The notes below the pieces were generated by a model. It was not told the origin of the DNA. It searched no databases and saw only the letters and a program-made list of their open reading frames with translations. The translations under genes and the position numbers were made by a program. A stretch of DNA of 64,000 nucleotides from Ischnura elegans (Eukaryota; Arthropoda; Insecta; Odonata; Coenagrionidae). Numbering within the stretch: position 1 is the first letter of the stretch; each line of letters opens with the position of its first letter. Of the stretch, positions 12,501 to 61,808 are shown one piece after another. The stretch spans positions 85,199,907 to 85,263,906 of the forward strand of contig NC_060249.1 in NCBI RefSeq assembly GCF_921293095.1. The letters run 5' to 3'.

Positions 12501-12776
12501 TGATGTATCAGAAAGAAAAGACAGTGGCAGATTCCACAATTTATTAAATACTGCGACCGGTTTCAAAACATATTATCATCATCAGGCACTTGTAATAGAA
12601 ATATATCCACATATATAGTAATCAAGAGGGATGAAGGTGAAACCATCCCTCTTGACTACTACTTATGTGGAAATAATTCTATTACTAGTTCCTGATGATG
12701 ATAAGATGCTTTGATACCGGTCGCAGTATTTCATAAATTGTGGAACCTGCCACCGTCTTTCCTTTCTGATACATCT
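12501..12776. mobile_element. Foldback element with hammerhead-like cores
   Basis: Two inverted arms (about 12,501-12,632 and 12,634-12,776) pair over almost their whole length, starting from TGATGTATCAGAAAG and its complement. Each arm carries CTGATGATGA, then a variable segment, then GAAAC (GATAC in the right arm), then CGGTCGCAG. On the minus strand of the left arm the core is CTGATGA at 12,585-12,579 and GAAAC at 12,564-12,560, followed by the palindrome ACCGGT and a C. No coding capacity is seen. The ribozyme reading is inference and is treated as a finding. Confidence 0.8.
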
Positions 12777-12879
12777 TTAATTTTAGGATTCCACTGACCT
12801 TCAATGAGTAACTTGCTTTTCGTTGTTTTTTTTACCCATTCATATCTAATTTCTTTCTCAAATTCCAAGATAGAGAGTG

Positions 12880-13465
12880 TCTCCCTGTCTACCATTTTCC
12901 GGCTCGCTATTCCATGCAACTGATCCACCCGCACCTTTCCACTGCCGTCTCGGATGTTTCTTTTTTTCTCTCCTTCCAACTCCTCCCTTCTCAAAGTCTT
13001 CATTTTTTTTACCCAACCGTCGTGCTAAACTTCCCCGGCAACTATCCCTTTCTTCTCCTCTCCTGTTTTCCGAGCTCGCTAGCTCCTATTCCCTTCAGCC
13101 TCTTCCATTCTTAGGGAGTATTGGGGGAATTCCTCGGCTATGAGTGTACAGTGACAACCTCCCCCTATTCCAGACTCTCCCTCACTCCATGAAACGGGGC
13201 TCCAGGGTGAAGTTACCGCGCTCCAGAACTCTCAAAAGCCACCTCCTCGCCGCTACCTTCGTTTCCCTACCCCCGCGCCACTTCCACCAAAAACAAACTT
13301 TTCAAGTAGTTCCGTCTCTCCCCACCGCACGGCGCCCCCTCTCTCTTACCCACTCGAATTCCCTCGGCATATCCTTCACTATATATTCTTTTCCCCCTCC
13401 ACTCCCACGTCACTCTTCTTCCTTGCCGCACCCTTCCCGATCTCTCTCCCTCTAACACACACACA
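12880..13465. repeat. Pyrimidine-rich tract (plus strand)
   Basis: About 580 bp are dominated by C and T on the plus strand, ending in a CA microsatellite at about 13,456-13,467. Several overlapping open frames on both strands (for example plus 12,877-13,143 and 13,144-13,455) arise because stop codons are rare in such sequence. They carry only Ser/Pro/Leu/His-rich low-complexity protein and are not called as genes. Confidence 0.6.
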
Positions 13466-13529
13466 CAGCCAGGGAGCTAGTCCCCCGCGAGAAACCGACG
13501 AAAATCCCAATGGATGTGCCGAAGGGAAG

Positions 13530-14215
13530 AAGGAAGACGGCTTCACGATTCTGTATATTGCGACTGTCCTATGATCATTCCTCTTATTCCACCCAGAAGG
13601 ATGAATGCTTCACGATTCGGAACAACTCTACTGACCAATGACCGTGTTTATCTGGTTTTACATTTCACTATACGTGATTGTATATTTTTCTACCGAAAAT
13701 TTATATTTAACTATTGTGAATTTTTATGTATATCTGGATACATTTGAATAAAATTACCCTAAAGAGCGGTTTGGGGGAAGAGGGGACTTTTTAGTCGGAA
13801 CCTTGCCCGAATAAAGGCATATATCTATATATCATTCCATTCATTTCACCAAGGAGGAGACAGGCTTCACGACTCCGTATATCCACACTGCCCTATGATC
13901 ACTCCCTTCACTTCGCGAAGAAGGATGAAGGCTTCACGATTCCGTTTATCTCAACTGCCCTATGACCTTGTTTATCTGGTATGAGATTTTACTGATAGTG
14001 AATGTTGTTATTTTCTTATTTTTCTATTGTAAATGTTGTTTTACCTGTATGTATGTTATATGTATACAATGACGCTAACGAGGGGTTAGGTGGAAGAGGG
14101 GACGATCTATTTGTCAAAATCTCCCTTCATTTCGCCAAGCAGGATAAAGGCTTTACCATTCCGTATATCTCTGGTCTCCTATGATCTTTCCCTTCATTTC
14201 ACCAAAGGATAGAGT
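13530..14215. repeat. Tandem array with about 65-75-bp subunits in a larger period
   Basis: A motif of the form GGCTTCACGATTCCGTATAT, then CTGCCCTATGATC, then CCCTTCATTTCGCCAAG recurs at about 13,538, 13,602, 13,862, 13,930 and 14,150. Groups of these are separated by a related AT-rich segment containing TGTTTATCTGGT and by GG(A/T)(A/G)GAAGAGGGGAC. That gives an apparent higher-order spacing of about 310-320 bp. Copies are diverged and truncated, indicating an old minisatellite. Confidence 0.7.
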
Positions 14216-16140
14216 GTCACCTGATACCTCGTATTTGAATAGGTTCCAGGAGATGGACTAATTTTTTTCGGGTACGTTATACTTTGGCTAGATATAGTTT
14301 GCCAAAGCATTCAAAGCAAAGGCAATTTCTGCCTATCCGTGGGGGAACGTTATAAGAAACGCCTACAAAATAAGCTTAGTGACAAATATTGGAAAATTTT
14401 CCCTAAGCGCAGACCGAGAAATTGAGGGGAATAAGCTCTGTACCTTGATAAATCATTTAGATTTCGAGCATAACGAAGAAAATTATATTATACTTTGTTG
14501 ATTACAGATTAAGAGCCTTTAATAATTAAGATTAACTTTCATCACTGAAGATTAAATCTATTCAATTTCGGCATTGTGAGTTATTGTTATTTATAGTCAC
14601 CCGATGAATGGAACAGAATGTAAAAAATGAGACTTCGAAATCTGAAATAAATACGTAAATAACAGCATGTATTTTAAATGGAATAGCGCTTTTCTTTCAT
14701 TTTATTTAATAAATTCTTACGAAGACTACTTTGAAAGTCGAAAACACAACAATATTAACGGGAAGCCAAACCATATGTCAAACATTTTTCATTAAAGTAA
14801 CAGTAGCTACTTCTCTTTAATTACAGTTTTACCACTTTTACGATTACTTTTCTATTTTTAGTTTAACAATTCAATATGCCGCACCATACATTTCTACCAC
14901 CATTTTTATGCATTATTTTTACTATTTTAAAATCAATAACTATCACAGCAAACTTTATATTTCAATTGTAACCAATATTTTTCACATAATGATATCAGCA
15001 ACATCCCAAAAACCCAAACATGATAGTGATATTTTTCAATAGGTTACATTTTCCATGCATAAATTCAATACCTAGAAAACATACATTAGAAAGTCAAATT
15101 TTTCTAATTTACGTCAATGAAATATAGTTAGAAGAGTATAATTTTAAGTTCCATCAAATTATTATTTTATTTGTCAAGCTAAAGTCTCCTTATTTGAGAT
15201 ACTTTATTTTTACTACATACTAATAGTTGGGATTGTCATTCCCTTAACCTCTTTTCTCAAAGACATGGTACCACTGATCCCTCACATATTAAAAGAATCG
15301 CAGTCAACTGGAACATTTATTTTTTAAGTTTATCTACGATTAAAACTTATGCGCATGGCTGATGAGAATTTTTTATAAGCGGAGGTAAATTTCGCGTCGG
15401 TTTTTATGCAGGATCAATGGGATAAAGCATCAATTTTACGGGGCCACTATTTCAGTAAAATGAGGGCATTCAAGATCAGACATTGAATAGCACAATGAAA
15501 AATAACCAATTCGAGGTCAAATTAATGTGTGACGGGCGTCATTAACAGATAGGCCAACTCTTACGTGAAAGGTTGGAAATAAATTCTATCGGAACTGATG
15601 AAAGAAAACAAAACATAACACCGCACCGTCTACTAATTTCTCTCAACATAGGTCGGTATAGGTTTATGCGTTAATTATAGCCTAGTAATTTTATTTTTCG
15701 GTCATGCTTGCTTAGTTTATCTCGTTTTTTCCTATTTTTCGTATCAAATACATTTTGAATATTACCTTACAGGATTTTTTTACGATATATTACTTTTTCT
15801 TGTTGATAAATATTGTATGAAACATATTCACTGCCGTAGCTTGATCTAATTGTAAGTCATCCAAATTAGACTCTATCGCTGTATTTTTTTAAATAAGACT
15901 TTAAGTGATTTTTTTTCTAGGGTGGCAAGGATGTGAGGATTATTTTTTACGTTTAGATACTATTTTTCTCTCTGAGTACCTAAACTAGGATACTTTAAGT
16001 TTGACACCGATTCGATAGTTACTGGAGTAAATAACGTAATTCTAACACGGCACGATATAGATGCAGGAAAATTTCATATTAACTATTGCATCGATTGGAT
16101 AAGGCGCTGCCGAAATTAGGATTGGGAATAATCCTCAAGT
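14216..16140. other. Long AT-rich spacer
   Basis: Nothing recognisable in either strand. Open frames are short and lack motifs. Confidence 0.55.
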
Positions 16141-16149
16141 TCTGGTCCT

Positions 16150-16660
16150 CGTAATGTATTTCGACACGTGTTCGATGGCCCTAATGGCTAAGGCCCTGAT
16201 CACGGAACCATGAAGCTAGGGTGGCGAGAGATAGAGGAGGGCGTAGAGGCTAGTTTGCCTGGGTCAGGGTAAGAACCCTTTCTCCCACATACATTCCCGT
16301 TCGGCTCCCCCTACGCCGGGTGGCGCGTCTTCCATCCCCAACGCCGCCAGCCTCTATACCCCCCGCCGGTGTGTCAGCGGGGGTTGCCTAGGGGAAGGTA
16401 GCGTCAGGGTGCAAATGGGTCTGGATGGAAGCTTGCGCGGTGAAACCATCCCCGTGGGAGTCGCTCGCACCCTGGGGAGGGTATAAATGGGGGGAGTCTC
16501 GCTTCTCGACTGTAGTGCGGTCCCGCTTTCCAATGGGGCGATAATGGGGAGCCGACTTGGGAATATGCTGTGGCTGATGGGGGAAAGGAATATGCACCTC
16601 CAGAGAAAAAAAGTAGCTGTTCTTGAGTCGGATCAATGTGGATTTTAACTTTAATCCAAA
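16150..16660. other. GC-rich block, possibly headed by a tRNA-like SINE fragment
   Basis: The start contains TGGCCCTAATGGCTAAGGC (about 16,176-16,194), which resembles the D-arm and A-box region of tRNA-derived SINEs. A matching B box (GGTTCGANTCC) is not present at the expected distance. The rest is GC-rich with a 93-codon minus frame (16,388-16,669) that has no domain. Confidence 0.3.
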
Positions 16661-16782
16661 TCTATCCACTTCTTTGTTGACGAAGGTGTTATAACGTAAC
16701 AGCTACATCAGTCACGTGATTCTCTCTGTATCATTTTAAGACTAATCATACATTTGCTAGAAAATTGCTTCTTATCCTATAG

Positions 16783-17090: not shown

Positions 17091-17095
17091 TCGGT

Positions 17096-18800: not shown

Positions 18801-18801
18801 A

Positions 18802-28463: not shown

Positions 28464-29393
28464 GTACGTATCGTATAATTATAGAGGTATTGATGAAAGT
28501 GTGTTCAAAATAATTTTTGGTTTTGTTAAAGATGCCTACTTATTATTTCGATGAAATTGCCGAGTTTAAATTTGAAGGGCATGAATCAATGGATACTTTT
28601 AAAGTCTCCTGAGTGATTAAACATTTATATAACGTTCCGGCCTTAGTTATTGGAAGTCTTTTGGCAATGATTGCAGTGGTGGAAAAGTTATTCATTGTTG
28701 AATAGGTAATTCGGCATGTTTAATTTAGTCATGAATCCCATTCGGTGGATCGAAGTATATCATTTAATTCAGATTGATATTGCTTTAAGCTATTCCTGAA
28801 AGGTTCTTAATATGGTAATAAGTAAAGGTAGCACAGTGAAATTACTCAAGTGCATAAAATATCTTTGTTTTTATGTCACCGTTTGATGTGAATGAAATAT
28901 TTTCATGATTTAATATAAATATTTACAATTAATCTTGTGGGTTATAATTAAAGAGATGAGGAGTTGAATAGCGGCATTCACTTACTACTTTAAAATATTA
29001 GAATTTCTTTTAATTTAATTGACAGCAGTCCAAGATTTCCTGTACTTGGAAGTGTGTAAATTATTTTAATTTTATTGTTTGGTGGAGTCAAAGAGTGTAA
29101 ATTTAGTCTAGCTGGCCAAATATTCAAGTACTTACTTAATTAATTACAAATAAAAGAAGCACGGCCGTGGTATAAAAAATCCAACCGGCTAGAGTAGCAT
29201 TTATTAATAGCTTTTTTTATTGGAAGGCTTATTGTATTGATCGCAGCGATAGAAAAGTTATTGCTTTCTAGTTAAAAATTTGGGCAATTCGTCAAATTTT
29301 ATTTATTCATGACTCCTATTTGGTGAATCAATTCTTATTAATTCCTGTAAGCCATAATTCTCGATTATTCAGAGTTAAACAAATATTGTTGTC

Positions 29394-29599
29394 GGTGATT
29401 GTTTTTCGGGTTCATTCCGCGTGGTCTCATATTTTGAGGACGGCAGTTTCGGGCGTGTTCCAGCTCCCGTCTTTGGTTCCAAATGATTGGACATTATCAT
29501 TGATTATCATTTGTACCCGAAGACGGGAGCTGGAACGCGCCCGAAACTGTCGTCCGCAAAATATGAGTCAATGCTGAATGAACCCGAAAACCAATCACC
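29394..29599. mobile_element. 206-bp foldback MITE-like palindrome
   Basis: The arms begin GGTGATTGTTTTTCGGGTTC and pair with the complement ending at 29,599, meeting in a short AT-rich centre near 29,490-29,505. Similarity spans nearly the whole element (CAGTTTCGGGCG, CCAGCTCCCGTCTT and so on). It sits within the THAP element, so it is probably the innermost layer of a three-level nest. The open frames on both strands are by-products of the palindrome. Confidence 0.8.
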
Positions 29600-30039
29600 A
29601 AATAACTCACCGCGGAAGCCTCCGTAATAAATATTGTAGTCATTGGTATCCCTATACACGCTTCAGTTTTCTCAAGGTTAAAAATTAAAGGCATGAGGGG
29701 TAGAATAGAAAAATAGAGTGGTCTAAAGAATTGAAAATGCTTTAAAATAAATTAATAGTCATTCAAAATATCATGCAATGGGAAGTAAGCGATTACTTTT
29801 TATATGAGCGTAAATATGTAAAATATTTAATTTGATTGTTGTACTGAGACCTAAATAGTGAATTGCATTACTTTTACAGGTGTGTGTGAAGAGAATTTTG
29901 CTCCTCATGGCATAATTCGTGAATTAGGGAAGTATGATGAGAGGACAGCGAGATTACTTTCCGCACCATTGAAATGATCACGACTGAGACGCTGTGACAT
30001 CCTAACTTCCCTATTACCCCATCTACCTGTCTTCTCAGG

Positions 30040-31494: not shown

Positions 31495-32987
31495 ATGGCC
31501 GTTTGGGAGAGGAACGCTGTGGAAGCCCTCATTAGTTTTTACGAGGAAAAAAGGTGTTTGTACGAAGTAAGCTCCCCAGATTACCACTTGAAGCAGAAGA
31601 GAAGTTCGGCGCTGCAAGACATAGCCACTAATTTGTTGCCTGTAAGTAAAATTATAATTATAATTGTTTTGGTTAACCTTGACCTATACCTAACTCGTGA
31701 AGATATTAACTAATGCAATATTTATATAAATATATATTACGTATATATTATGTGTGATATCGGAATGCTTCGATAATTGTCGTGATAATATTTTGTACGT
31801 TTATTTCCTTAAAATTATAATTTCATTCACAAATATACATTTCTGGAGCTAGGGCTTGTTTCGTTCAAGTGGTGTTGGATATGTTTTTATTTAGATAAGT
31901 GGTGGTCCCGTAGTGGCCTTTATATTGAGTTTTTTGTAATACGAGGTTTCAATGAATCCTACAAAGAATTATTTTGTGGTTACCGCCGATATGGTCTTTT
32001 AAAATATATGTTTACTCGATACTCCCAACAGTTTCGACCTGGTACCACATCGGAGGACGTGAAAACGAAGATAAATGGCCTCCGCACACAATACATGGCT
32101 GAAAAAAACAAATTAATCAGGTCGAAGAAGAGTGGAGCAGGAGTGGAAGAGGTTGTAAGGCCAAAATTGTGGTGCTACAACAATTTAAGTTTCCTTGAAA
32201 GGCATACGGCACCCAGGAAGAGCATATCAAACTTGGATCCAGTGGATCTTAACAAGGTATGCCGATGACACTTGCAAATAAATTCGTCTTTATTACGTAT
32301 AATTTGTTTTGCTGGAATGTGCATTGTTTGCTTCTGGCATGAAGTAATAACATGAAAAGTCAAATTCAAGGGGCATGTTTGGAACGAGTCTATTGTTTGA
32401 GATCGTCCATTGACTCCATTATTTACCATTGTTGATCATCTATTTTGGTTTACTGTTTACGGAAATTTGTGATCTTACTTTGAGTGCCCACTTCAACGCA
32501 GTTACTTCTGCGATATTTATGTTTTAGCTACACTTGAATTCACGAAGGGACTTCTTTGCACTTCTGAACATTACATTAATTTTTTTGTCTGTAGGAAACG
32601 CCCATTGAAATACAATCAGGAGAGTTATCAGATGTCACGGCAGAAGAGCAGCATGAAATTGGTACCATCCCAGTCCCCTTACTCAGTGAAGAGTCCACCT
32701 CTGCCAGCGCTGACCACTGCAACATCTCCTCAAGAAGCGGGTCATCAAGAGGAGTACCGACCCCCAAGAGGAGAAGGACTGAGGAAGCAGACATAACTAC
32801 CTTCCTCTCAAAGGCTTCGTCAGCCCTTGAGCAAGGGACACTGCGGAAAAACACAAAATTTGAAAATTTCGGCCTATTTGTAGGGCAAGAAATTGCCGAT
32901 ATTAGTGACGAAAAAAAACAGAAAGCTGCAATGCAGAAAATTTTTGATATAGTAATGAAAGCTAAAGATGATGAGAATGAAAGTTAA
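31495..32987 (+). CDS. Harbinger MADF-domain accessory protein, three exons
   Basis: Three exons join in phase 0 to give a 254-residue protein: 31,495-31,641, 32,032-32,256 and 32,595-32,987. Introns start GTAAGT and GTATGC and end CCCAACAG and TCTGTAG. The N-terminal ~100 residues form a MADF/Myb-SANT-like fold: residues 4-49 contain the W-x-LISFYEE-x-LYE-PDYH pattern and ALQDIA. Residues 58-104 contain VKTKINGLRTQY, then SKKSGAG and a PKLWCYNNLSFL block. MADF domains bind DNA, and the Harbinger copy helps the transposase reach the nucleus and the element ends. The C-terminal part is Ser/Glu-rich with a basic PKRRR stretch (about residue 180), a likely nuclear signal, then a Lys/Asp-rich helix. 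The start is the ATG in CATCATGG. All frames are open, in contrast with the broken transposase next door. Orientation is convergent with the transposase. Confidence 0.82.
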
Positions 32988-33029
32988 CTATTTTTGTATG
33001 TTTTTTATTTTATAATTTTAATTTACATT

Positions 33030-33700
33030 TTGTTACATTGAATTTGATTGTAAAATAATTGTTAATTATATAATTTGCTTGGTGGAATCACTGTTGTTTG
33101 GTCATTTCTTCAACCCTCAATGGCCATTTGTTAAAAAATCTTGAGTATATTGCATGATTTAAGAATTTGTTTCTACTATCATACCAAATAATCGTATAAC
33201 ATCAGGGAGTACGTAAGCTATATTAGTTGTTCAATTATTATTATTATTATTATTCAGTTTCTGACAAGGTTGCAAACTAACTTAATTTGAAGAAGTTCTA
33301 GAATAAACTTTGGTTTCTGAATCTTAACTTATAGCATTTTAGCCAATAGTCCTTCTATTTCCATGCGATGCAAGGACGCAAATGAGTGCTCTCCTTCTTA
33401 ACACGATTCATTCCAGCAATTTCCTATTTATTAACCATAGGTAGATAAACCATCATCATAGATTTTTTAATTGGTTCATTATGGCATAGTAGGCCACTAT
33501 CACACAAAAAAAGTCTTGATTTGGTTCAAATATAAAAAGCTTTATAGCGCAAGAAGGTTGTGAGTCATCAATAAAGCCAATAACACAAATGAAAAGTGGA
33601 ATAATTTTTCATAGAACTGCAGAAATATTACAATCTTTACTACCACAAAAATCACTAATAACAAAAGGGGGAATGAAATAGAGGAATTCATTAGCACTAC
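33030..33700. other. Non-coding segment between the convergent Harbinger genes
   Basis: This AT-rich stretch holds the 3' ends of both transcription units. It includes a (TTA)n microsatellite at about 33,236-33,258. No further gene is visible. Confidence 0.6.
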
Positions 33701-33706
33701 CACAAC

Positions 33707-35102
33707 CTACATGCCATTTCCCAATGGTAGTATTCCATCAGTCACAAAATATTCGCAAAATTCATCCCTAATAGCTCTCGCATCGTTATTGTGCCTATTT
33801 CCACCCTGTCTTACCAATTGACCGTCAAGTATTGGGCCCTCCCTCCACACTCCAGGAATTACCCTTCCATCACTCATCACTCTATCTACCAGACCTTGAG
33901 GCAAGTAATTAGCGTCCTTCTTTGATCTCAAAAAGTTGTGTAGTACTATACAGGCTAGTGTCACAATTTCCACTTTTTCAACAGAGAGATTGATACAGTT
34001 TAATAGTATTCTGAAGCGGTTCACTAAAATACCGAAAGCATTCTCTGATGTCCGCCTTGCCCGGCTAAGGCGATAATTAAAATTTCTCTTCTGCAAACTC
34101 AGTCCCCTATCTGGATATGGTTTCATTATGTTATGTTGCAGAGGAAAAGCATCATCTGCCACAATCACATGAGGGACACCGAGTACACGGCCAGGCAAAG
34201 CTATGTTCGGGGGTATATGCAAAGAATTTTGGCGCAATGCCTCAGCAAGGGTGCTCTCAAGAAAAACACCGCCATCACTCACTCTACCATTCACCCCGAC
34301 ATCGATGTATAAAAATTTATATCTGGCATCTACTAATGCTAACAGCACAATACTGTGTGAGCCTTTATAATTGAAATAGAAAGACCCGTCTGCTCTTGAG
34401 GATCTAAAATGTATATGCTTCCCATCAAGAGCACCAATGCAATTGGGAAAATTCCATTTTTCCTGAAATTCCCTTGCTATTTCCCCCCATTCATCAACAC
34501 TTCTCGGCATCTGAAATGAAAGATAATACATTAAAAATTCAAATCGAGGAATGCTATACTTATGTTCATATTAAATGGAGTGAATTGTACAAATTTTATC
34601 TAATTAGCTCGTTTCAAACAACTTACCTTCAAGAAATTCTCTTTCAGAACTTCATAAATAGCTCTGCATACTTGAGGTACAAAAAGAGAAATAGTATTGT
34701 GAGCAATCCTCGTGGAGTACTGTAGACTTTTGTAAGACTACAGTACTCCACGAGGCTAAAGATGAGGCGAGAAGTGGCTAAAAATCTCAGAGTCACCGCC
34801 AACCTATGTTTTGCCGAGATACATTCCCGTAAAATTGTGTCTCTTTTAGATATGAGAGGCGACACCAACTCCAGTAACTCTCTAAAATTGTTGTTATCCA
34901 TCCGGAGGAAGTTGGTGAAAGATTCCGGATCCTCCGTTTCCAATTCCCGGTACAGCAAGCTCATGCTACCAGCGGCATACCTCCGGCTTAACCATTCTCT
35001 TGACCAAAGCCTTCGACGATTTCTCCTCCGACCTTGCAGTACTGCTGCCACTACTCCTACGCAAAATGCCACTCTTGCTATATTTGCGTTGTCATTATCC
35101 AT
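33707..35102 (-). pseudogene. Harbinger DDE transposase, two exons, frameshifted
   Basis: Exon 1 (35,102-34,627; an upstream in-frame ATG at 35,159 is possible) carries the N-terminal helical region, including ESFTNFLRMDNNNFRELLE and KHRLAVTLRFLATS. The intron (34,626-34,511) runs from GTAAGT to TTTCATTTCAG. Exon 2 (34,510-33,707) is fully open for 267 residues and holds the DDE_Tnp_4 catalytic core. The first Asp is in GALDGKHI, the second in YIDVGVNGRVSDGG, and the Glu in RRTSENAFGIL; VADDAFPL lies between the last two. These residues coordinate the metals for strand transfer. A 26-bp insertion at 34,721-34,746 shifts exon 1 so that it ends in a stop before the donor. Without it the two exons would encode about 417 residues, the usual family length. 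It is a recent pseudogene and otherwise well preserved. Confidence 0.88.
34708..34755. repeat. 48-bp palindrome disrupting transposase exon 1
   Basis: Arms of 18 bp (CCTCGTGGAGTACTGTAG and complement) surround a short spacer. The inner 22 bases (34,721-34,742), themselves palindromic with ends TGTAG and CTACA, are flanked by GTAC on both sides. Without one GTAC and the 22-mer, the site is a 22-bp perfect palindrome in the reading frame. Confidence 0.8.
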
Positions 35103-35559
35103 CGTCGGACGCAAAACCAGATTTAATAATTGTAATGATGTATCAAATGATGATATCAAAACGTTGTTATGAGTACGGGTTTCTACGCGCTTTATCAGAG
35201 AATAGAACGCTATACGTTTTTCCTTTGTCGATCATGTTGACTATCGGTATTCAAGTCAATTCAAGCTTTCTGGAACAGTCTGAAAGAACGCTCAACTCGA
35301 TTCAATGTGTGTTGAACAATCACTCTTGAAAGACCGTCTCGAATGGTCTTGAATCTTCATTTAGCGTTCAAGACGACTTGTTCAACGTTCCTTGTTCATG
35401 ACATCTCGAATAGTGTGAAAGAGGCTTAAAAGTTTTAAGTCACGCAATATTTGAAACGGAGAGCATGGTGGATCCAGAGACGGGCTATGGGACACAATAT
35501 ATGATAGTATTAACGCAATATATGAGGTTCGTGGGTTATCCCTCACTTTCTACCGCCAG

Positions 35560-39779: not shown

Positions 39780-41390
39780 TGATATACGGATTCTGCAAAT
39801 GATATTTGCTCACTCCTCACATCCAAATTTTTCCTCCTTTCCTTGCATTCAAAAACATTCGTAAATCAAAGCACAAGTTTCTTGCGTACTTATAGGTCTA
39901 GAATAACAAAGAAGTTTCTAAAATAAAGTTTCGCATTGCTATGTAATTTATTTAATGATGATTTTAGGCTACAGCCTATTAGAGCCATGATAAAGATGAA
40001 TAACATTCAGTTCATTAGAATTTTTACTTTCGAAACCCGTGTAGGGGTTAAAATAATAATATTTTGAACTGCTTATGCATTGCTATTTCTTAACTACACA
40101 CTTCCCTCATTTGCATTATTTCTTTTTAGCTATTTTTTAATTGATAGATTCCTCCTGAAATTTTATTTCATCTCATTGGTAAAGATTCCAAACATTTTGA
40201 TATCCTATTACGGATTCTTCATAATTTACGTCCTGTCTCCTCATACTTGGACTGTTATCTCTTTTTTGGTCACCAGGATGAAAAATATGTGTTACCACTT
40301 CACCACAAAATACCACTTCAATGTTTTGTTTTCTTACAAAGATCTTTGCATTGGAATACTTTCTCGCCATTGCCTTTTCTACTTCCGTCAAATTAATCAA
40401 GCAGAAAATGTTATATTTGAGATCAATCTAATATTCTATAGTTGGCAACCAGACAATACTTGAACGAAAGAATGATCACTGTAGTAACCTACCGTTTTAT
40501 TCCATGTTAGCAGCTAATTTTTCAATCTTTTCCTGGATGCGTCTTTATGCCAATAGAGTCTGACACGTAATGGTTGTGAGATTAAAAGAATAAAATAGAA
40601 TATAATTTTATTTGCCTTGGGAGCCTTCGTTCCAAAGAACATACAATAAAGTTCATGTACGCAGGAATAGAAGGATTAACAACTTTGCTATTTACAGAGT
40701 AATTTATTGAGACCGACCATGGTTTCGTTACACAGTAACATTATGAAGGTTATTAATTATACTAATTATATAAGTTCATATACGTTTGAGCTCGATTTCA
40801 CATTGATTCTCTAATAAATTACATTATTATAAGCATTAATAAGAAATATTTAGTGGTGATTTTGCATTCATATTAAATTAAAACCCTTCTTGGTGGAATA
40901 AATACAATTTTTTTAAACAGATAGTGAACTGGATTTTTTATGCCGGTAGGACTACTATTCCAAAACCTGGTCCTAGCAGTGTGATATATGTTAAACAAAT
41001 CGCACCAAGGACAATTTGTACTTTTATCACATTTCCGTTCTTTCATGTCTATTAGTTCCCTAATTGATGAGACGTATCCCCATACCTTCCCCCGAGGTGA
41101 AGTGGTCGTCACTCCTCTAAGTAGGCCCCCAAGCAATCTGCGCAAAGATGCAATGCGGTCCAGGGCCGTGAAAGCCTTGCAAATGGGTTCCAGGCACATC
41201 AGTGGGCCGAACTAATCAATATATGGGTGAATCTAATTTTGATTGTGCTCTCACAGCAAGGAGTTATCATCCTATGCTTCCATTTGCGAAATACCTAGTA
41301 CTACATGCCACCGAGCCGGACGTTGAAAATTTGTTTCGGAACAACTTGCTTCTGCTCTGCTACAATGGAGTGCGGTTTTCTTTTTTGACT
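39780..41390. other. AT-rich spacer
   Basis: No gene is supported. Open frames at 40,080-40,463 (127 codons) and minus 40,873-41,199 (108 codons) have no domain or intron signals I can defend. Confidence 0.45.
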
Positions 41391-49828: not shown

Positions 49829-50609
49829 ATGTACACTAGGGTGGGCCGAAAAAAGGTTTTTCTTCCTAATCAAATTTGCCCTTTGCGGGAAAGTTGCGAA
49901 ATGATATGAGGATCTCGCACACAAATTTTTTTTCAAATCGGATAATATTAACCACTGCCGCCCGAGCTCTAAAGTTTAAAATTTTGCGAAAAATCAGGCT
50001 GATTTCAGAATCAAACGGCTGTGAAGACGAATTTTAAGAAAATATGGGATAATGGACAATATCAAAGAGTGGATACATGTTTATAGTTTATGAAAATGAA
50101 ATTTGAAGTTTTTTTGACAAAATCTATGGTTAAAAAATGCCTATGAATTAACAACAAAAGTATAGTATAGACCACCCGCACAACACAACTGATTTTTGCC
50201 TACATTTCTAAAATTCCATTTTGGGGGCTAAATTGCAGGTAAAATAATATTTATTTCGATTGAATTTCATTTTTTATCAAATAAGTCATCATATGGTAGT
50301 AAATAATCCCACAAATAAGTAATAATAAGGTAAATTATTTGAAATTAACAGCAATCACAATGACGAAAAGCGTACCTGTGGAGCTATTTTCAACAAGTAA
50401 TTCAGCCAAGGCTGAGAAAAAACAGAACATGAACACAAAGCATTTCACTAAGTAGCTCTCTGCTAGTTTCGTAAACAAACTAGGTACCCAAAAATCACCA
50501 CGAGGAACAGGCTACCATCGAGTTCCACCCGTGTCCCCCCAACCAACCTTCCAAAGGATTACGGGAGGATTGACGCAATGGTTAAAATAGAGGGAAAGCG
50601 TACCAGGTG

Positions 50610-52600
50610 TGGAGTGGAGAGCATGATATTTGTTGCATCCGAAAATTTCACGGGTAATGATTTGCCCACTTATGAAGAGATGATGAAGATGTTTTTGTAC
50701 TCTCGGTACATTAGAGAAGAAAGTTAAAATACCATTATTTCTCTGCCGGGAATCACGGAGACAGTGGCTTATGCCATTGAAGGCATTTGGCATAGATCCT
50801 CTATCCCAGTTGATGGATATAGGCAAATTGTTTGACGAGTTATTCAATATCATGGAAATAATCGCAATATTCTTCGATCTGTCAAGAAGAATGCTTTCAT
50901 TGATCTGAAGCAAGACTTTCTTCGTCACGCACGTCAGCTTTTTGATGTTGCGGCATGTAAATTGCTTTAGTGGGATTGATTGTGTTGTGATATTCCTTCG
51001 AAAGTGCCTAGTTTAGAATGGGAATTCCCTTAAGACAGAGAAGTGGCAGGAAAATGAAGATAGGCGCCATCGATGTGCAGGAGACCAAAAATAAGAAGAC
51101 GAGGCTTTGCAGGTTTGGAAGGAAAAAAGGAACACCCGAATGTTCCACCCTATTTTGTCATAACTCCTCTGTTCGGAAGACTCAGGTGATGAAATGACAT
51201 TGAACGTAGAGTTATGTAATGCAAGTGAAGGAGAGGATTTCATGGAAAAAGGTTAGTGTAAGTAATTTGAAATTGCCAAGATTTGCATCATCCTGTGAAT
51301 AATTCTGCATATCAAACCATACCTCTGCAGCACTTCCATCTATGTACTTTTTGTTGACAAGAACAAAGAAGGGAAAGAGAAAGATTGCGCACGTCTCTTC
51401 GGAGGAATGTGGGTACTGTTAAACTGCAAGTGCTTTACTTCGACGATAGGAAAGACTCAATATATAGTCAATCAATGTGAAAAACAATAGGTGAGAAGCA
51501 TGTAACTCTCGTTCAAGAGCCCGGTTCACGCTACTTATGGCATGTCACCCCATGTGTCAGCAAAGCCTCTCAGATTCTATCACGAATTTTCTAGCGGAGG
51601 ATATGATCATTATCGATGGACTGCAAGAAATTGTGTGCGATGGAACTGAGGTTGAGGTCAACACCGGAAGCCATGCCAGAGTAATCAGGAGAATGGAAAT
51701 GGCCCTAAGAAGACCTTTGCATTGGTTTGTTTGCCTGTTTCATTGCAATGAACTATCGTTTAGTACCGTCAATAGAACTGATGACCCTGGCAAAATTTGT
51801 TATCGAAGTTTACGCTCCAATGCGGTTTTCAATAAAATTGAGACAATATTGAACAGACGGCCCGAAGCATTTTATGAACATGATTCTTCTTATGAAATAT
51901 ATAGATAGAGACATTAAATTACGCCACTACTCTATGATTCAGGGAAATGTAATTTTGCTCACCCAGAGACTATTCTGCTTGCAATGTTAGCCGATGAACG
52001 CAGACAAATTCGTGCAATGGCCATCACAAATACATTGAAATCGAGAGAAACTCAGCAGGAGGAATTGAGGAAATTCGAATTTTCCAAAGCTAACCTTCGA
52101 TGCAGTGAAGAGTTCTCGGGATCGCCACCGGGCCAGGAACTCCATATCTGCCGACGTTTCGATGTCCAACTCGGTCATCGTCTTCAGGGCTGTGAAGTGT
52201 TCATTCACAGCCCTTAGAAAGATGACCGAGTCGGACATCGAAACGTCGGCAGATATGGAGTTCCTGACCCGGTGGCGATCCCGAGAAATCTTCACTCAGT
52301 CCATTCGCCGGGAAAGCACAAAATCTTTCTAAACTTCGAAGCTCAAATTTATATCGACTTGGTTGACTGGGAACCAATTGAGGTAAATCAACCACCAATA
52401 GTAGCTGGGATGACAACAAAAACCTGGAAGACCTTGTTACGGAAAGATCTGTATTAGAAGAACCTTTTCCCTGCCATACACAAGCAGTGGAAAGGATGGT
52501 ACAAATGATAATGTTAGCATCAAAATCCGTGTACAGTATATAACGCAGGCATGGATGGGCATTATCGTGCATAAGAAACAGAGAAATTTAGCCGAAATTT
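50610..52600 (+). pseudogene. Decayed gene of an uncharacterised element-borne family
   Basis: Collinear coding blocks are spread over three frames with stops. About 50,620-50,975 contains FVASENFTGNDLPTYEEMMK and a long block with DLKQDFLRHARQLFDVAACK. About 51,020-51,180 contains QRSGRKMKIGAIDVQETK. About 51,500-51,590 contains HVTLVQEPGSRYLWHVTP. The best block, 51,600-51,905, reads VCDGTEVEVNTGSHARVIRR followed by PLHWFVCLFHCNELSF. Then come MLADERRQIRAMAI (51,984), IYIDLVDWEPIEVNQPP (about 52,348) and EEPFPCHTQAVERMVQM (about 52,458). From memory this order (CDGTxxNTG, then RPLxWxxCLxHxNEL, then PCHTQAVER) matches an uncharacterised multi-copy family in arthropod and cnidarian genomes. 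The Asp, His and Glu residues suggest an RNase-H-like transposase core, but that is inference. A 226-bp foldback interrupts it. Confidence 0.68.
52103..52328. mobile_element. Foldback element inserted in the decayed gene
   Basis: Near-copies CTAACCTTCGATGC (52,089-52,102) and CTAAACTTCGAAGC (52,329-52,342) flank the insert, a 14-bp target duplication with two changes. The arms (from AGTGAAGAGTTCTCGGGATC inward, and complement) pair through CCATATCTGCCGACGTTTCG and meet near 52,195. The minus strand of the left arm has CTGAAGA, a stem-forming segment, and GAAACGTC, a hammerhead-like layout. The right arm lies against a short unpaired tail. A 14-bp duplication suits retrotransposition better than cut-and-paste. 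Confidence 0.8.
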
Positions 52601-53385
52601 GAAAAAAATCACAAAATAATTTTGTCAGAGTAATTCATGTGCTTTCACAATCGTGTCCTTTGGAAGGTTGGTTGGGGGGACACGGGTGGAACTCGATGGT
52701 AGCCTGTTCCTCGTGGTGATTTTTGGGTACCTAGTTTGTTTACGAAACTAGCAGAGAGCTACTTAGTGAAATGCTTTGTGTTCATGTTCTGTTTTTTCTC
52801 AGCCTTGGCTGAATTACTTGTTGAAAATAGCTCCACAGGTACGCTTTTCGTCATTGTGATTGCTGTTAATTTCAAATAATTTACCTTATTATTACTTATT
52901 TGTGGGATTATTTACTACCATATGATGACTTATTTGATAAAAAATGAAATTCAATCGAAATAAATATTATTTTACCTGCAATTTAGCCCCCAAAATGGAA
53001 TTTTAGAAATGTAGGCAAAAATCAGTTGTGTTGTGCGGGTGGTCTATACTATACTTTTGTTGTTAATTCATAGGCATTTTTTAACCATAGATTTTGTCAA
53101 AAAAACTTCAAATTTCATTTTCATAAACTATAAACATGTATCCACTCTTTGATATTGTCCATTATCCCATATTTTCTTAAAATTCGTCTTCACAGCCGTT
53201 TGATTCTGAAATCAGCCTGATTTTTCGCAAAATTTTAAACTTTAGAGCTCGGGCGGCAGTGGTTAATATTATCCGATTTGAAAAAAAATTTGTGTGCGAG
53301 ATCCTCATATCATTTCGCAACTTTCCCACACAGGGCAAATTTTATCAGGAAAAAAAACCTTTTTTCGGCCCACCCTAATGTACAC

Positions 53386-53970: not shown

Positions 53971-53974
53971 CAAG

Positions 53975-55864: not shown

Positions 55865-55899
55865 ACCGGGATGGAATAATTTCAGGAAGCGATGAAGGA

Positions 55900-56989: not shown

Positions 56990-58275
56990 CCTGAAAGTGG
57001 TGCCGAGTGACTCCACCTGTCGACGCGCTCGGGAAACTTACTCTGCCAGTACGATGTAGGTGGTGAAGGAAGGACAGGCGTCTCTTCGCGATCGCAGCGC
57101 CTCTGTCGGTGGCGGCGAGAAGAGCCGCAGTATCTCCTTATCCTCCAACGGGCGTCCCGGAGAAGTAAAAGGGCCCCTTCGCCGTCGTCGTTTGCCTTAA
57201 CCTTGATTTGCATATGAATGAGAGTGAAAAGCCAAAGGAAGCCCGCCGCCCTCTGCCGACACGCATATGTATTCCGGTCGTGTATTTCCCTGATGCCGAC
57301 GACTCTCCTCTTCTGCCGCCCATGTTGCGACTCTTCCTCCCGCCAATCCGATCCCCTCCACGCGGGCCACAAATATATATTACAGGAATCAAAAGTCCCG
57401 AGAATTTCACCCGCTTTTCCCGATTTTATTTTCACTTATTCCCGAATATTTTGGAATTAATAAAATCAGAAGAACCATGCGTGATGGAGTGGGATTTTTC
57501 CATGTTGAAAAATAAACTTGTAATTTTATACGTTTGTATAATAAATTATTATTATTTTATTATTATAATTTTTTAAATTAATAATAGTGGAAATTCGTAT
57601 GTTTGTATTTCAATTTTGAAATTACATATTTTCTCTACTAGTTATAACTCATTATATGTTTTCTCGGAGGAGGTAGGAGGTATTTCACAATACTCATACA
57701 CTTTATTGCAGCAAACGCTTTGCTTTATTGAAAGCTTCATTGAGATTTCAAAATGTATAATGGAGCTAAGTATTTACCGTAATGTGAAGCTGACTATATG
57801 TTGCACAGGTACCTTCGCATCTAATTGAATACTGTTTCGCAATAAAAGGAAAATGACAGGAAATAATAAATTTATGTGAAAATAATTACCTAGTGATACC
57901 TCTAAGATAAATAAGAGAATATACATGGGAATGTGCTATAAAATGTTCTCCCTATCACATAGTATGAGTAATATTCCTACAAAATCCCCGATGATAAATT
58001 TATCTCGACGACCCTAATATGAGGTTGAAAAGGAATGCATTAAATGTGAAGTTTGCAAAATTAGCAATTTGGTTTATTCTCCCCCTCGTCTCCCTCACTC
58101 GCCGCCCAGGGCAAACCGCCCGTTCGCCCCCTTCATGCGGTCTCCGCAACCACCACGCCCTCTGCCGGACACCCCTCTCTCGGTCCTCCTCGGTTGCTTT
58201 TCTGCGGGCGACGGATAACCAGCAACATGCAGCCAGCACGCCTCCCCGCCCTCTGCCGGACTGCGAAGACTTCGG
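56990..58275. promoter_or_regulatory. GC/CpG-rich blocks with repeated CTCF-like motif
   Basis: Two GC-rich blocks (about 57,000-57,420 and 58,080-58,265) flank an AT-rich interval. The 13-mer CGCCCTCTGCCGG occurs at 58,156-58,168 and 58,247-58,259, and the closely related GCCCTCTGCCG at 57,248-57,258. Its complement, CCGGCAGAGGGCG, resembles the core of the animal CTCF site. Long frames on both strands (such as minus 56,971-57,435, 154 codons) lack domains and overlap one another, so no gene is called. Promoter or insulator function is inference. Confidence 0.3.
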
Positions 58276-59390
58276 GTTCATTTTTTATATTTAAGAGGGC
58301 TGGGTGGAATGAGGATTATGGTTGTTTTTTTAGGTGATGATCTTTTTCATTAATTTTTTCAGAGGTGTAATAGGAGATAAAAAGGATAAGGAACAGGGTT
58401 CATAGCTTCCGGATTTATACTTTGGAAGGAAAAAGTAATACATATGCCTGATGCTGTTCCATTGAGAAATGGAAGAAATTTTATTTTCATAAAAACTTCT
58501 TAGTAGGAATTCTTTGATGAACTACCCCTCTATTTATTTTAATTACTCTCTTTAATGATAAATTAATCCGTTAATTAATTTTTTATTCACTGTATGGTAG
58601 TAAGATGTCTTTCCACTTATTTGACATTAAAATTTTATTATTAGTTGTAAATAGTAGCTAGTGTAAAAATCACTCTGTCATAATAAATACTCCTATATCA
58701 GGCGCAAAGAAAGAAAATAATCATGGTAATAATACGGAGTTACTTCACCTTGATTTTGTTTTAGCTGCTTATTAATTTATGCCATGATAGACTCTAAAAT
58801 GCGATAACTCAAAATACCTAAATGACATGGTGGTATGGTGAAATTATGTATGGGATTGTTCACAAGTCACCGTATTGATGTCCCTTACCAATCCCCCATT
58901 GAATCGTAGTACACTAACCTTTTAAGATGAGAGTTTGTTACACTATTAAAGAAAAGGATAAAATTCTGCTCTCATTTTTTAAAACACTATGCCACACTTA
59001 GGCCTCCTGAGGTGTTTGGAACGGAAAAGGTTGGTTTCTTAGGGTTTTCGTTTATAATGCATGTAATTTCACTCAGGTCATGATGAGATAAAAGAAACTA
59101 AGAGAAGATAAAGGGGTGATATAAAATTAATGATTCATGCTGTACTTGCGAATTCAATGAATTGGCATAAAACTTTTGCTCCGCACATTACACTTTTCAT
59201 TTTTTCCGACCAATACTTCAACGAAATGTGTCATTTTCAAAGTGAAAAAACATCGGTAGTCAACTTTTTTTCGATACTATTTATGAGTGAAATATGAAGG
59301 TGAAAGGGAAGAAAAGGACGTGAAGATGGTGATGAGATGAGGGCGAGAGATTAGTAATATCATTAACTAGATTGGCATTACTAAATTTTT
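58276..59390. other. AT-rich spacer
   Basis: No gene or element was recognised. Confidence 0.5.
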
Positions 59391-59477
59391 GCTTTCTTTT
59401 TTAATTTCAAATTGCTCGTAAAATCGAATTCTCTGCCTTTATTTTGCATATGCAAAAAATAATTTCCCTTGCAATCC

Positions 59478-59900
59478 CTCCTGTAGAAGGGAAATCGTGG
59501 GAAGTACAAAGTGAAATTTCTACTTCCAAGAAGGGGTAGAAATGGCTCGAGAGGGGGCCGAAAAGCCTAGAAAGAACACAAAACAAAAGCTTAAAAAAAG
59601 AGGGAGGAGGGGTGGGGAGATTCTTTTTAAGTAAATTAGATTGAGGCAAGTTGTGGGGAAGAGGGAGGATAGGGTTTAAGGGAGCAAAAAAAAAAGAGAA
59701 AAAACAGTTTCGGGGAGCAAGAAGGAATTGGAGCAACGGGGATTAAGGAGGGTTGGTTGGGGGCTGTTGACTTCTGGGGAGCGTGGGAGAGTGTATAATG
59801 CGGGGATGAAGGGTCGGGATGGATCCAGGAATGGAGAGGAGGAATTCGTGAGCGACTTGCGAGAGTGTTTGTCCCCATGAAAAGCGTATGGAAGGGAAGC
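59478..59900 (+). repeat. Purine-rich tract
   Basis: About 420 bp are strongly A/G-biased on the plus strand, the mirror composition of the C/T tracts at 12.9, 18.0 and 20.0 kb. Minus-strand frames of about 80-110 codons are low-complexity Pro/Ser/Phe/Leu products of this bias. Confidence 0.6.
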
Positions 59901-60755
59901 GGAGGAAGGGATTATCCTGTATCAGGCAAGATATTTCAATATTGCGATGATCAGCGAATCGAAAAATATGTTTTCCCTTTATCAATTCTCCCGTATTTTT
60001 CTTAATTCTTCTAATCCTATTGTAATCAGTTCGCTGGGCTATGAAATTACCTGAGGATTTGAAAGTTGATGAAGCATTTGACTGAGCAACACATTTTCCA
60101 TACTCGACTGCTTTTGAAGGAAGGGGTTAGTTTGAAGCCATGACTTTCGATGAAATACGGTTTCTTACTTATATATTGCGCCACTATTGTCTAAACCAAT
60201 ACCCATGTCATGAATTTACTGACTGATTTTTAATGGCTAGTGATATTAAAAGGAAAACTTCTAGTTTTTCCATCTGAGCATAAATAATATGATCATTATT
60301 CTCTTTCATTTTGGAGTTTCCCATTCATAAAATCCGGTAGAAACATTCTATTGGATTTTAAATAGTATATTTAAGTCCGCCATTAAATTCCTTCCCAATC
60401 TCTCCAATATCGAAACAATTTCAGAGGGATTACTTTCTTTATTTGAAAGCAGTACGGAGCCCATATTGTTTACAGTGTCTCTCCATGGAATGGGACGAAA
60501 TTTTATCAGTTTTAATCAAGGTTTTGCCCAACTCGATACTCAATTTTACATTTTCATTTTTCTAATGGGTAAGAAATTTCGTGACAGGCAATAGAAATGT
60601 TAAAATTTTATGTGGTTACTAATTAAAAAAACATTTGAAAAAACACCATTTTTTAGAAAGAGAAGACGGTGATAATAGGTTTCCACTTCCGTGATAACGG
60701 CAAAAACTTTTTCTTAAGGACCATTTCAAAATATCTTCGGCTTCATAAATATCAT
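59901..60755. other. AT-rich spacer
   Basis: No feature recognised up to the TA target site of the mariner element. Confidence 0.5.
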
Positions 60756-60760
60756 TTATA

Positions 60761-61515
60761 CGAGGACTGTCCAGGAAGTAACGAACGTTTTGGCATGGCG
60801 GGGCAATGGTTGGAACTAGCGCCTCTATCTCCGCGTCAGAGTTTTCCTACCAGCCGTGGTAGCTTGCGCATCGTGCTCATTATAATCTGTATACAGTGGA
60901 ATGTTAAAATGAGCTTTGCGATTAAAAATCCCGGCAGATGTGAAGTTAGAGCTGTGATAAGTTTTTTATTGACAAGAAATCACAGAACAAATGAAATTCA
61001 TCGCCAGATTTACTATTTGTACGATAAAGGGATAGTGACTATAAAATTAAGACGCGCGATGCAAAACAAGCGACGGGAAAAAATCAGCAAAAAAGTTTTG
61101 TTTCTCCACGACAACACTCATCCAAACACGCCCAATCGTACCCAAGAGCTCTTAGACAGTTTAGGATGGGAAGTTTTCAATCATCCACAATAGAGCCCAG
61201 ATTTGGCGCTTATAGACTATCACCTGTTCCTGGCGATGAAGATGTGGCCCACTTTGCAACGATTTGATACTGATGCTGAACTGAATTCCGCTAAAAAAAA
61301 AACAGTGAATGAACTCGTAGGTGGCAGATTTCTAAACACTGGGTTCTGATTGAAAAGCTTGTGCATATCACGTTGCGATAATTGGTTAATTTTAAATGGC
61401 ATTTTGTAGAAAAGTAGCCAAAGATTTTACCTTAATAATGTCTATAATAAAAATTGTTATTCTAACTGTGCTTATTTTTATTTCAAAATGTCTCTTAATT
61501 TCTGTACAGCCCTCG
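60761..61515 (+). mobile_element. Internally deleted mariner element
   Basis: TA dinucleotides (60,759-60,760 and 61,516-61,517) flank the 755-bp element, the usual Tc1/mariner duplication. The ends pair as CGAGGACTGTCCAGGAAGTA on the left and the complement of CGAGGGCTGTACAGAAATTA on the right. Full mariners are about 1.3 kb, so roughly half is missing. The enclosed transposase pseudogene retains only its two ends. Confidence 0.9.
60909..61430 (+). pseudogene. Mariner transposase, internally deleted
   Basis: The N terminus reads MSFAIKNPGRCEVRAVISFL and NEIHRQIYYLYDKG, the first helix-turn-helix. It then joins directly to a C-terminal part with RRAMQNKRREKISKKVLFLH, DNTHPNTPNRTQELL and SPDLALIDYHLFLAMK. 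The middle of the protein, with the second helix-turn-helix and the first catalytic Asp, is gone. The second Asp (LHDN) and third Asp (the D of IDYHLF, D34D spacing) remain. A TAG stop interrupts the last block near 61,191, replacing the residue before SPDLA. It cannot be active and would depend on a full-length relative. Confidence 0.85.
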
Positions 61516-61650
61516 TAATTTCTATTTCTGACGTGAGAGGGATTTGAAAAGGAGAGAGGATCCTTTTGCATTTTGGTTATGATTATAAAATAATGTCTTT
61601 GGTGATAAAATCAAAAAGAAGAAAGTTTTGCTTTCACATCAAGTATATAT

Positions 61651-61808
61651 TCACACATTTACACGACCATGGTTTCAACGTAAGACGTCATCATCAGGTG
61701 AACTCTGAGTCACCTGATGATGACGTAAGAGTTACCTGATGATGATCTAGAGTCCACCTGATGATGACGTCTTACGCTGAAACCATGGTCGTGTAAATGT
61801 GTATGTAT
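61651..61808. mobile_element. Foldback element with repeated CACCTGATGATGA and hammerhead-like cores
   Basis: The arms (about 61,651-61,705 and 61,755-61,808) pair through ACATTTACACGACCATGGTT and onward. The centre is built from further CACCTGATGATGA copies, making about four in all. The plus-strand core is CTGATGA at 61,758-61,764, GAAAC at 61,779-61,783, the palindrome ACCATGGT at 61,782-61,789 and C at 61,790. CAC (61,755-61,757) pairs with GTG (61,791-61,793). The mirror arm carries the same core on the minus strand. No coding capacity. Confidence 0.82.

What the first reader, a model, noticed from the sequence alone, without database searches (positions are those of the whole stretch)
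12501..61808. Hammerhead-ribozyme-like cores shared by three unrelated foldback families
Seen: in the foldbacks at 12.5, 52.1 and 61.65 kb the same order recurs: CTGANGA, a variable segment, GAA plus a self-complementary block (ACCGGT, ACGT or ACCATGGT), then C. In each, the 3 nt before CTGANGA pair with the 3 nt after that C, using different bases. The pairs are TGC/GCA (12,588-12,586 with 12,554-12,552, minus), GCC/GGC (52,190-52,188 with 52,152-52,150, minus) and CAC/GTG (61,755-61,757 with 61,791-61,793, plus). The 52.1-kb copy also has a strong stem II (GATG/CATC, CC/GG). Known: the hammerhead core is CUGANGA, GAAA and a cleavage site ending UH; very short palindromic stem III is typical of hammerheads that act as dimers, and Penelope-like retroelements and small retrozymes carry them. 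Inference: these foldbacks descend from ribozyme-bearing retroelements. Stem II is weak in two of the three.
Basis: partly seen in the sequence, partly recalled or inferred. Interest (0 to 1): 0.78.

Follow-up and report, generated by a model that had tools for sequence, protein, structure and literature searches.

The report
Twin Penelope retroelement ends with ribozymes
The small hairpin repeats in this stretch of a large genome are most likely tiny, double-ended insertions of Penelope-like retroelements, which are known to carry a small self-cutting RNA motif; here that motif is recognisable but partly decayed, and the hairpins look like leftovers of how the elements jump.

Summary
All three cores are at the stated coordinates; 1,000 dinucleotide shuffles gave 11 chance hits in total, at most one each, against 4 observed. 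Genome-wide, the ACCGGT and ACCATGGT motifs number 2,213 and 1,204, against 9 and 0 for reversed patterns. Stem II covaries if one extra nucleotide is allowed after CTGANGA (52 of 54 pairs; permutation maximum 46).

The foldbacks are best read as Penelope-like element (PLE) insertions: two short 5'-truncated copies, head to head. Evidence: one genome copy carries reverse transcriptase and a weak GIY-YIG match beside the same core; a start-of-ORF peptide lies in the outer 'tail' of A and C; 60 of 61 twin insertions of one family have exactly one tailed arm; target duplications, with candidates at all four window foldbacks, A's weak alone. A fourth foldback, at 29.4 kb, belongs here but its core is broken.

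PLE hammerheads and inverted pLTRs are published. What I did not find in the papers I could see: the near-strict one-tail rule, the absence of a clear pile-up of insertion ends at the cut site, and a 1,584-motif family with a broken core. Cleavage was not tested.

The parts
12452..12464 (.). Foldback A: candidate left target-site duplication (TTTAAGCTTAGGA)
   Evidence: 11 of 13 identical to 12776-12788 at the boundary expected for a tailed left arm; score 5 is below the 90th percentile (6) of random draws, so weak alone
12465..12775 (.). Foldback A: twin PLE insertion, head to head, tail on the left arm
   Evidence: Arms 89% complementary, matching to +84 from C3; left arm runs on into a tail reading MEFHHVSPDTIEF
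12550..12590 (-). Foldback A left-arm minimal hammerhead (block ACCGGT)
   Evidence: Model R1 E 2.3e-11
12687..12727 (+). Foldback A right-arm hammerhead, damaged (GATACCGGTC; stem I broken)
   Evidence: Model R1 E 1.2e-5
12776..12788 (.). Foldback A: candidate right target-site duplication (TTTAATTTTAGGA)
52090..52103 (.). Foldback B: candidate left target-site duplication (CTAACCTTCGATGC)
   Evidence: The script found 11 nt with 1 mismatch, score 7 = 95th percentile of random draws; by eye 12 of 14 identical to 52329-52342
52104..52328 (.). Foldback B: twin insertion of another PLE clade whose ORF starts inside stem II; tail 52297-52328 on the right arm
   Evidence: right arm reads MTESDIETSADMEFLTRWRSREIFTQSIRRESTKSF, with a similar peptide in a relative in L033
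52148..52192 (-). Foldback B left-arm hammerhead (block ACGT); predicted cut after nt 26 of the ORF
   Evidence: model R1 E only 0.29
52329..52342 (.). Foldback B: candidate right target-site duplication (CTAAACTTCGAAGC)
   Evidence: and sequence
61593..61604 (.). Foldback C: candidate left target-site duplication (ATGTCTTTGGTG)
   Evidence: 11 of 12 identical to 61888-61899; no random control was run for this window
61605..61887 (.). Foldback C: twin PLE insertion; tail from 61851 on the right arm reads MNRFHKITPQTI
61660..61702 (-). Foldback C left-arm hammerhead (block ACCATGGT)
   Evidence: Model R1 E 1.9e-9
61753..61795 (+). Foldback C right-arm hammerhead (block ACCATGGT)
   Evidence: Model R1 E 6.1e-7
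61888..61899 (.). Foldback C: candidate right target-site duplication (ATGACTTTGGTG)
29381..29393 (.). Foldback D: left target-site duplication (AAATATTGTTGTC)
   Evidence: 12 of 13 identical to 29629-29641; score 9 equals the maximum of 300 random draws
29394..29628 (.). Foldback D (not in the finding): twin PLE-like insertion, tail 29600-29628 on the right arm, degenerate core CCGAAGA / CCAAAGA
   Evidence: family
29629..29641 (.). Foldback D: right target-site duplication (AAATATTGTAGTC)
40710..40752 (-). Possible single-armed hammerhead remnant (stem GTTAC/GTAAC, block ACCATGGT, core damaged)
   Evidence: Model R1 E 0.013; no second copy of this arm in the window by blastn

Best explanation
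Each foldback is one insertion of a Penelope-like element of the GIY-YIG type: two short, 5'-truncated copies of the pLTR/ORF-start region joined head to head and flanked by a target-site duplication of about 8-14 bp. The element's minimal type I hammerhead (stem I, stem II after one extra nucleotide, self-complementary block able to act as stem III in a dimer) lies near the 3' end of the pLTR, so arms that reach it carry it near the palindrome centre, reading outward. Most likely mechanism: the element's protein cuts both target strands; each 3' end primes cDNA at one of two nearby internal sites on the element RNA, one at the pLTR end and one about 30-40 nt further on, giving one tailed arm; both cDNAs usually stop within about 200 nt, and their ends are joined, sometimes with short overlaps. 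Shown by sequence: anatomy, covariation, head-to-head order, duplications, one-tail rule in one family. Inferred: double priming, end joining, past ribozyme activity.
For: Genome motif counts: 2,213 vs 9 control, 1,204 vs 0, 1,925 vs 0 (overlaps the first). Covariation: stem II 52/54 with the extra nucleotide, 16/54 without; stem I 37/45, permutation P 0.0004; on 12 sequences outside the window 85.3% of cells paired, 0 of 500 shuffles as high. PLE identity: L016 ORF with RVT_1 E 9.6e-8 and GIY-YIG E 0.001 on a fragment, 0.0065 on the whole ORF, both below Pfam's cut-off; its stop is 39 nt before C3 of a hammerhead. Tail peptides M-x(1-2)-F-H in A, C and six other loci. Orientation in the first 100 listed places of each family, neighbours within 4 kb: 18 head-to-head, 0 tail-to-tail, 1 overlapping ++; 20 and 0 (C-type), 19 and 1 plus one -- (D motif). 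One tailed arm in 60 of 61 GTCGC-family insertions, and by eye in 6 of 6 C-type and 3 of 3 D-type loci that I had picked as close pairs. Duplications: 24 of 29 score at least 8 against 5 of 400 random pairs. PMC11167929 (section 3): PAc protein cleaves and extends both strands, RT starts 111-118 bp into the ORF, cut site 26 bp after the start codon; B's C17 is nt 26 of its ORF.
Against: No PLE reverse transcriptase or endonuclease was found in the window (tblastn with L016 fragments; Pfam was run on only six window ORFs). GIY-YIG is below the Pfam cut-off. No full-length element was seen for families A, B, C or D. B scores poorly with the model (E 0.29) and D is not reported. PMC11167929 saw no difference in RT start between strands, whereas here the arms nearly always differ. 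A's duplication scores 5 and B's 7 where the random median is 2, the 95th percentile 7 and the maximum 9. No Rfam hammerhead model reports the window, though none reports seven loci with such cores elsewhere either. One D-motif neighbour pair is tail to tail.
Confidence: 0.87

Rival explanations
1. Self-priming: one cDNA folds back on its own 3' end and copies itself, making the palindrome (self-priming, on an antisense template, is proposed for Penelope palindromes in PMC3846280).
For: 11 of 61 insertions have both arms starting within 1 nt of each other, 9 of them at -24 to -40, by or inside a short palindrome in the pLTR (seen by eye); PMC3846280 describes palindromes at inverted junctions.
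Against: A snap-back copy should repeat the same outer end, but 60 of 61 insertions have one tailed and one untailed arm, and 50 of 61 pairs start at different points.
Confidence: 0.12
2. The foldbacks are MITE-like or Foldback DNA transposons that happen to contain a hammerhead-like motif.
For: Short palindromes with target duplications; a DNA transposase is present in the window (DDE_Tnp_4, 33710-34570).
Against: In the family studied, centres vary (5' truncation) while outer ends fall at two fixed places; outer ends of A and C carry an ORF start shared with other loci; L016 has RT and a weak GIY-YIG match.
Confidence: 0.03
3. They are non-autonomous retrozymes (small tandem hammerhead repeats moving through circular RNA).
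For: Type I hammerheads; retrozyme-like repeats are reported in many invertebrates including insects (PMC7229834, passages read).
Against: Neighbours are head to head, not tandem: within 4 kb one ++ (overlapping hits of one place), none in C-type and one -- in the D motif.
Confidence: 0.03

Closest known systems
Penelope-like elements with minimal type I hammerheads in pLTRs (Cervera and de la Pena 2014; Lunse et al. 2017; originals not held, known here only from passages of PMC7761336 and from reference titles)
   Same: Helix III lacking or very short, possible cleavage as dimers; thousands of dispersed minimal motifs in animal genomes; presence in pLTRs.
   Different: Here many dispersed motifs are explained as twin 5'-truncated insertions. 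I could not check whether the extra nucleotide after CTGANGA is described in the originals.
PAc, Poseidon of Anolis (PMC11167929; section 3 read in both parts, plus search passages)
   Same: Hammerhead at the pLTR/ORF junction, cut site 26 nt into the ORF (as in B), internal RT start about 110 nt into the ORF (B's tailed arm ends at 107), both strands extended.
   Different: In families A and C the ORF appears to start beyond the ribozyme, in the tail; here the outer ends of the two arms differ in nearly every insertion of the family studied.
Adineta vaga Penelope families (PMC3846280, passages read)
   Same: Inverted head-to-head pLTRs, 8-10 bp duplications in several copies (none in others), optional 31-bp tail on one of the inverted pLTRs, palindromes at junctions.
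   Different: Here the tail is close to obligatory on exactly one arm, and most arms examined are at most 200 nt (107 of 122).

Membership tests
Penelope-like elements (GIY-YIG type) | RT and GIY-YIG endonuclease in one ORF | tested here: met
   L016 ORF: RVT_1 E 9.6e-8; GIY-YIG E 0.001 on the fragment, 0.0065 on the ORF, below the curated cut-off. Tested on one GTCGC-family copy, not on window copies.
Penelope-like elements (GIY-YIG type) | Inverted head-to-head pLTRs with tail and target duplication | tested here: met
   for window copies the duplications are candidates
Penelope-like elements (GIY-YIG type) | Full-length element belonging to each window family | not tested
Type I hammerhead ribozyme (minimal PLE form) | Core CUGANGA...GAA and UH cleavage site | tested here: met
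   A left arm, B left arm, both C arms. Not met for D (CCGAAGA/CCAAAGA); damaged in A right and B right arms
Type I hammerhead ribozyme (minimal PLE form) | Stems I and II supported by covariation | tested here: met
Type I hammerhead ribozyme (minimal PLE form) | Stem III, here a self-complementary block for dimers | tested here: inconclusive
   ACCGGT, ACCATGGT and ACGT are palindromes, but two of these were in the search patterns; one search shows other palindromes and also 6 non-self-complementary rows. It cannot covary within one molecule. D's ACTGT is not a palindrome
Type I hammerhead ribozyme (minimal PLE form) | Match to an Rfam hammerhead model | tested here: not met
   None in the window nor in seven loci with PLE cores at E up to 1
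Type I hammerhead ribozyme (minimal PLE form) | Self-cleavage | not testable with these tools
   Needs RNA experiments
Metazoan retrozymes | Tandem repeats of about 150-450 bp with a hammerhead each | tested here: not met
   Neighbouring copies in the listed places are head to head, not tandem

The most novel reading that the evidence does not exclude
PLE integration uses a paired, offset priming rule: one DNA strand is primed at the pLTR end and the other about 30-40 nt further into the ORF, so every insertion has exactly one tail. Ribozyme cleavage is not needed to make the template, since insertion ends do not clearly pile up at the cut site and a family whose core is broken in nearly every copy checked holds 1,584 motif copies.
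Probability: 0.5. Interest if true: 0.65.

Novelty: new member of a known kind. Interest (0 to 1): 0.5.

Why it matters
[quoted passage not shown] A genome full of twin insertions is a natural record of template ends and priming sites. In 70 tail-anchored loci of one family, 3 of 123 arms (2 loci) begin exactly after the predicted cut, which argues against routine use of cleaved RNA as template and agrees with the in vitro result in PMC11167929. The near-strict one-tail rule constrains models of how a PLE protein primes the two strands. It also offers a reason why small hairpins with hammerhead cores lie scattered in such genomes; in the window they scored below cut-off with miRNA-precursor models.

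Tried and rejected
Rfam: at E up to 10, matches on the foldbacks were below their families' cut-offs, many of them miRNA precursors as expected for long hairpins; none was a hammerhead. IMG/VR pattern scans: one search gave three contigs, two of which (L002, L003) look like real hammerheads by eye and one a chance hit; one search gave four contigs with one shared unrelated sequence; two searches gave nothing. My first reading that C ended at +45 and lacked a tail was wrong; C-type family copies corrected it. My prediction that relatives of D would carry an intact CTGANGA failed: the whole genome has 9 exact matches, and 1 of the 100 exact D motifs listed is among them. A pile-up of ends at the cleavage site was looked for and not clearly seen. 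The ACGT (B-type) genome count, the GIY-YIG family search and the RF00163 genome search did not complete. A whole-genome count of the step at the cut site was planned and not done.
Full report
Observation. The strict pattern gives 4 hits in the window, all inside the named foldbacks; 1,000 dinucleotide shuffles gave 11 hits in all, never more than one per shuffle. No Rfam hammerhead model reports the window or the three foldbacks alone, but Rfam also misses seven loci holding such cores elsewhere in the genome, some with a five-pair stem II (E up to 1), so this weighs little.

Genome-wide test. The window lies in an unnamed 1.72-Gb assembly. The ACCGGT form occurs 2,213 times against 9 for the reversed pattern, the ACCATGGT form 1,204 against 0, and a form with any ACNNNT block after CTGATGATG 1,925 against 0 (overlapping the first). 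These are motif copies; a twin insertion can hold two. The ACGT form (B) could not be counted because that search did not complete.

Structure. In 18 representative sequences, stem II pairs in 52 of 54 positions if one nucleotide, mostly T, is left unpaired after CTGANGA; 5,000 permutations of partners reached at most 46. Without the extra nucleotide 16 of 54 pair. Stem I pairs in 37 of 45, P 0.0004. I chose these sequences by hand; four are from the window and several are variants of the same stem, so they are not 18 independent cases. On 12 sequences from outside the window, 85.3% of cells pair, 18 cells have changes on both sides (shuffle mean 7.8), and sliding the strands by 1 to 3 columns drops pairing to 50% or less. 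An extra nucleotide at this place in a natural hammerhead is something I recall for a viroid. Two IMG/VR contigs, L002 and L003, show it too, with stem III changed on both sides between them (by eye; model R1 E about 5e-5); Rfam at gathering did not call them.

Identity. Locus L016 carries an ORF with a reverse transcriptase (E 9.6e-8) and a weak GIY-YIG match (E 0.001 on a fragment). Its stop lies 39 nt before the hammerhead C3, and an inverted partial copy that repeats the end of the ORF lies head to head with it. RT with GIY-YIG in one ORF defines canonical Penelope-like elements (PMC11167929, section 3).

Architecture. In the first 100 listed places of each family, neighbours within 4 kb are head to head in 18 cases and never tail to tail for ACCGGT, plus one overlapping ++; 20 and 0 for ACCATGGT; 19 and 1, plus one --, for the D motif. 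Outer ends were studied at length in the GTCGC family. In 61 distinct twin insertions from 130 fetched loci (some the same place), 60 have exactly one arm ending near +79 and one running on by about 42 nt; one was called two-tailed at a low threshold, probably L023, which one search left open. Seventy of the loci were found by the tail itself and could not show tail-less pairs. Of the 60 found by the ribozyme, 18 had been picked as pairs; they give 29 scorable pairs, 28 with one tail, one open and none without. By eye, 6 of 6 C-type and 3 of 3 D-type loci, picked as close pairs, agree. Target duplications score at least 8 in 24 of 29 pairs, against 5 of 400 random pairs. PMC3846280 (passages) describes inverted pLTRs, an optional 31-bp tail on one of them and 8-10 bp duplications in several copies; this is the same structure, more strictly asymmetric.

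Window copies. A: element 12,465-12,775, candidate duplication 12,452-12,464 / 12,776-12,788, left tail reading MEFHHVSPDTIEF. C: 61,605-61,887, candidate duplication 61,593-61,604 / 61,888-61,899, right tail reading MNRFHKITPQTI. The motif F-[HY]-x-[VIL]-x-P-[EDQ]-T occurs only at these two places in the six frames of the window, and similar starts recur elsewhere (MDFHKVKPETIKF, MSRFHSISPETSD, MIDFHRVLPETVS). B: 52,104-52,328, candidate duplication 52,090-52,103 / 52,329-52,342; its ORF starts in stem II, C17 is nt 26 of that ORF, and the tailed arm ends 107 nt into it. A relative inside L033 reads through a similar peptide. PMC11167929 reports for PAc a cut site 26 bp after the start codon and RT starts 111-118 bp into the ORF. 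D: 29,394-29,628, duplication 29,381-29,393 / 29,629-29,641. Against random flanks (median 2, 95th percentile 7, maximum 9 of 300) the scores are A 5, B 7, D 9; C scores 8 in a different search window without its own control.

D family. The D motif occurs 1,584 times at up to 2 mismatches against 0 control. Only 9 exact copies in the genome have CTGANGA before it, one of them among the 100 exact copies listed. In the three loci read, five of six arms have CCGAAGA; stem I is GGAC/GTCC in two arms and shorter in the others, and the block is not a palindrome (by eye). I infer an inactive ribozyme in a family that nevertheless multiplied; that it was once active is not shown.

Does cleavage matter? 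In the 70 tail-anchored GTCGC loci, 97 of 123 arms start between -60 and +85 relative to C3. Three arms in two loci start at +33, the first nucleotide after the predicted cut; positions 28-36 otherwise have 0-2 each, so there is no clear peak. The highest counts are at -32 (7) and -30 (5), near a short palindrome seen by eye. Arms are short: median 120 nt, 107 of 122 at most 200 nt.

Mechanism. Double target-primed synthesis from two start sites explains outward-reading ribozymes near the centre, fixed outer ends, variable centres, duplications and the single tail. Self-priming explains equal arms but not the tail difference. The foldback segments fold at -101 to -175 kcal/mol as RNA, so I infer that a whole-foldback transcript would bury the ribozyme.

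Literature. Searches listed no paper whose title or abstract start describes the one-tail rule or a cut-site test. The 2014 and 2017 papers on PLE hammerheads and a 2021 PLE paper are not held, so priority is uncertain. Papers seen: PMC11167929 section 3 and passages; passages only of PMC7229834 (with outline), PMC7761336, PMC6466107, PMC3846280, PMC12910113, PMC8969392.

Duplications in the window are now called candidates and A's is marked weak; the stem III membership row was lowered to inconclusive; the D-family wording was mended.

Noticed in passing
29394-29628: A fourth PLE-like foldback with a degenerate ribozyme core (CCGAAGA); its motif occurs 1,584 times at up to 2 mismatches, and CTGANGA is rare before it.
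   Followed up: yes
40710-40752 (-): Possible single-armed hammerhead remnant with stem GTTAC/GTAAC and block ACCATGGT; model E 0.013.
   Followed up: partly
49830-53384: 729-nt inverted arms, 99% complementary, 2.1 kb apart, with foldback B inside the spacer; possibly a recent DNA transposon or inverted duplication.
   Followed up: no
31813-35231: DDE_Tnp_4 transposase (33710-34570, -) and a MADF domain fragment (31813-32265, +), perhaps a Harbinger-like element.
   Followed up: no
62000-63345: Cluster of direct and inverted repeats (131-nt direct repeat, 176-nt inverted arms at 87%) next to foldback C.
   Followed up: no
L002 2259-2295 (+), L003 8177-8213 (-): IMG/VR contigs with what look like complete hammerheads, an extra U after CTGATGA and stem III changed on both sides (ACCAT/ATGGT, ACGCC/GGCGT), not called by Rfam at gathering.
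   Followed up: partly
L033 about 1100-1320: A B-clade twin insertion that appears nested inside a GTCGC-family insertion (by eye).
   Followed up: partly
-40 to -24 of the GTCGC-family pLTR: 9 of the 11 insertions whose two arms start within 1 nt of each other begin here, around the short palindrome AATAACTGTTATT (by eye).
   Followed up: partly
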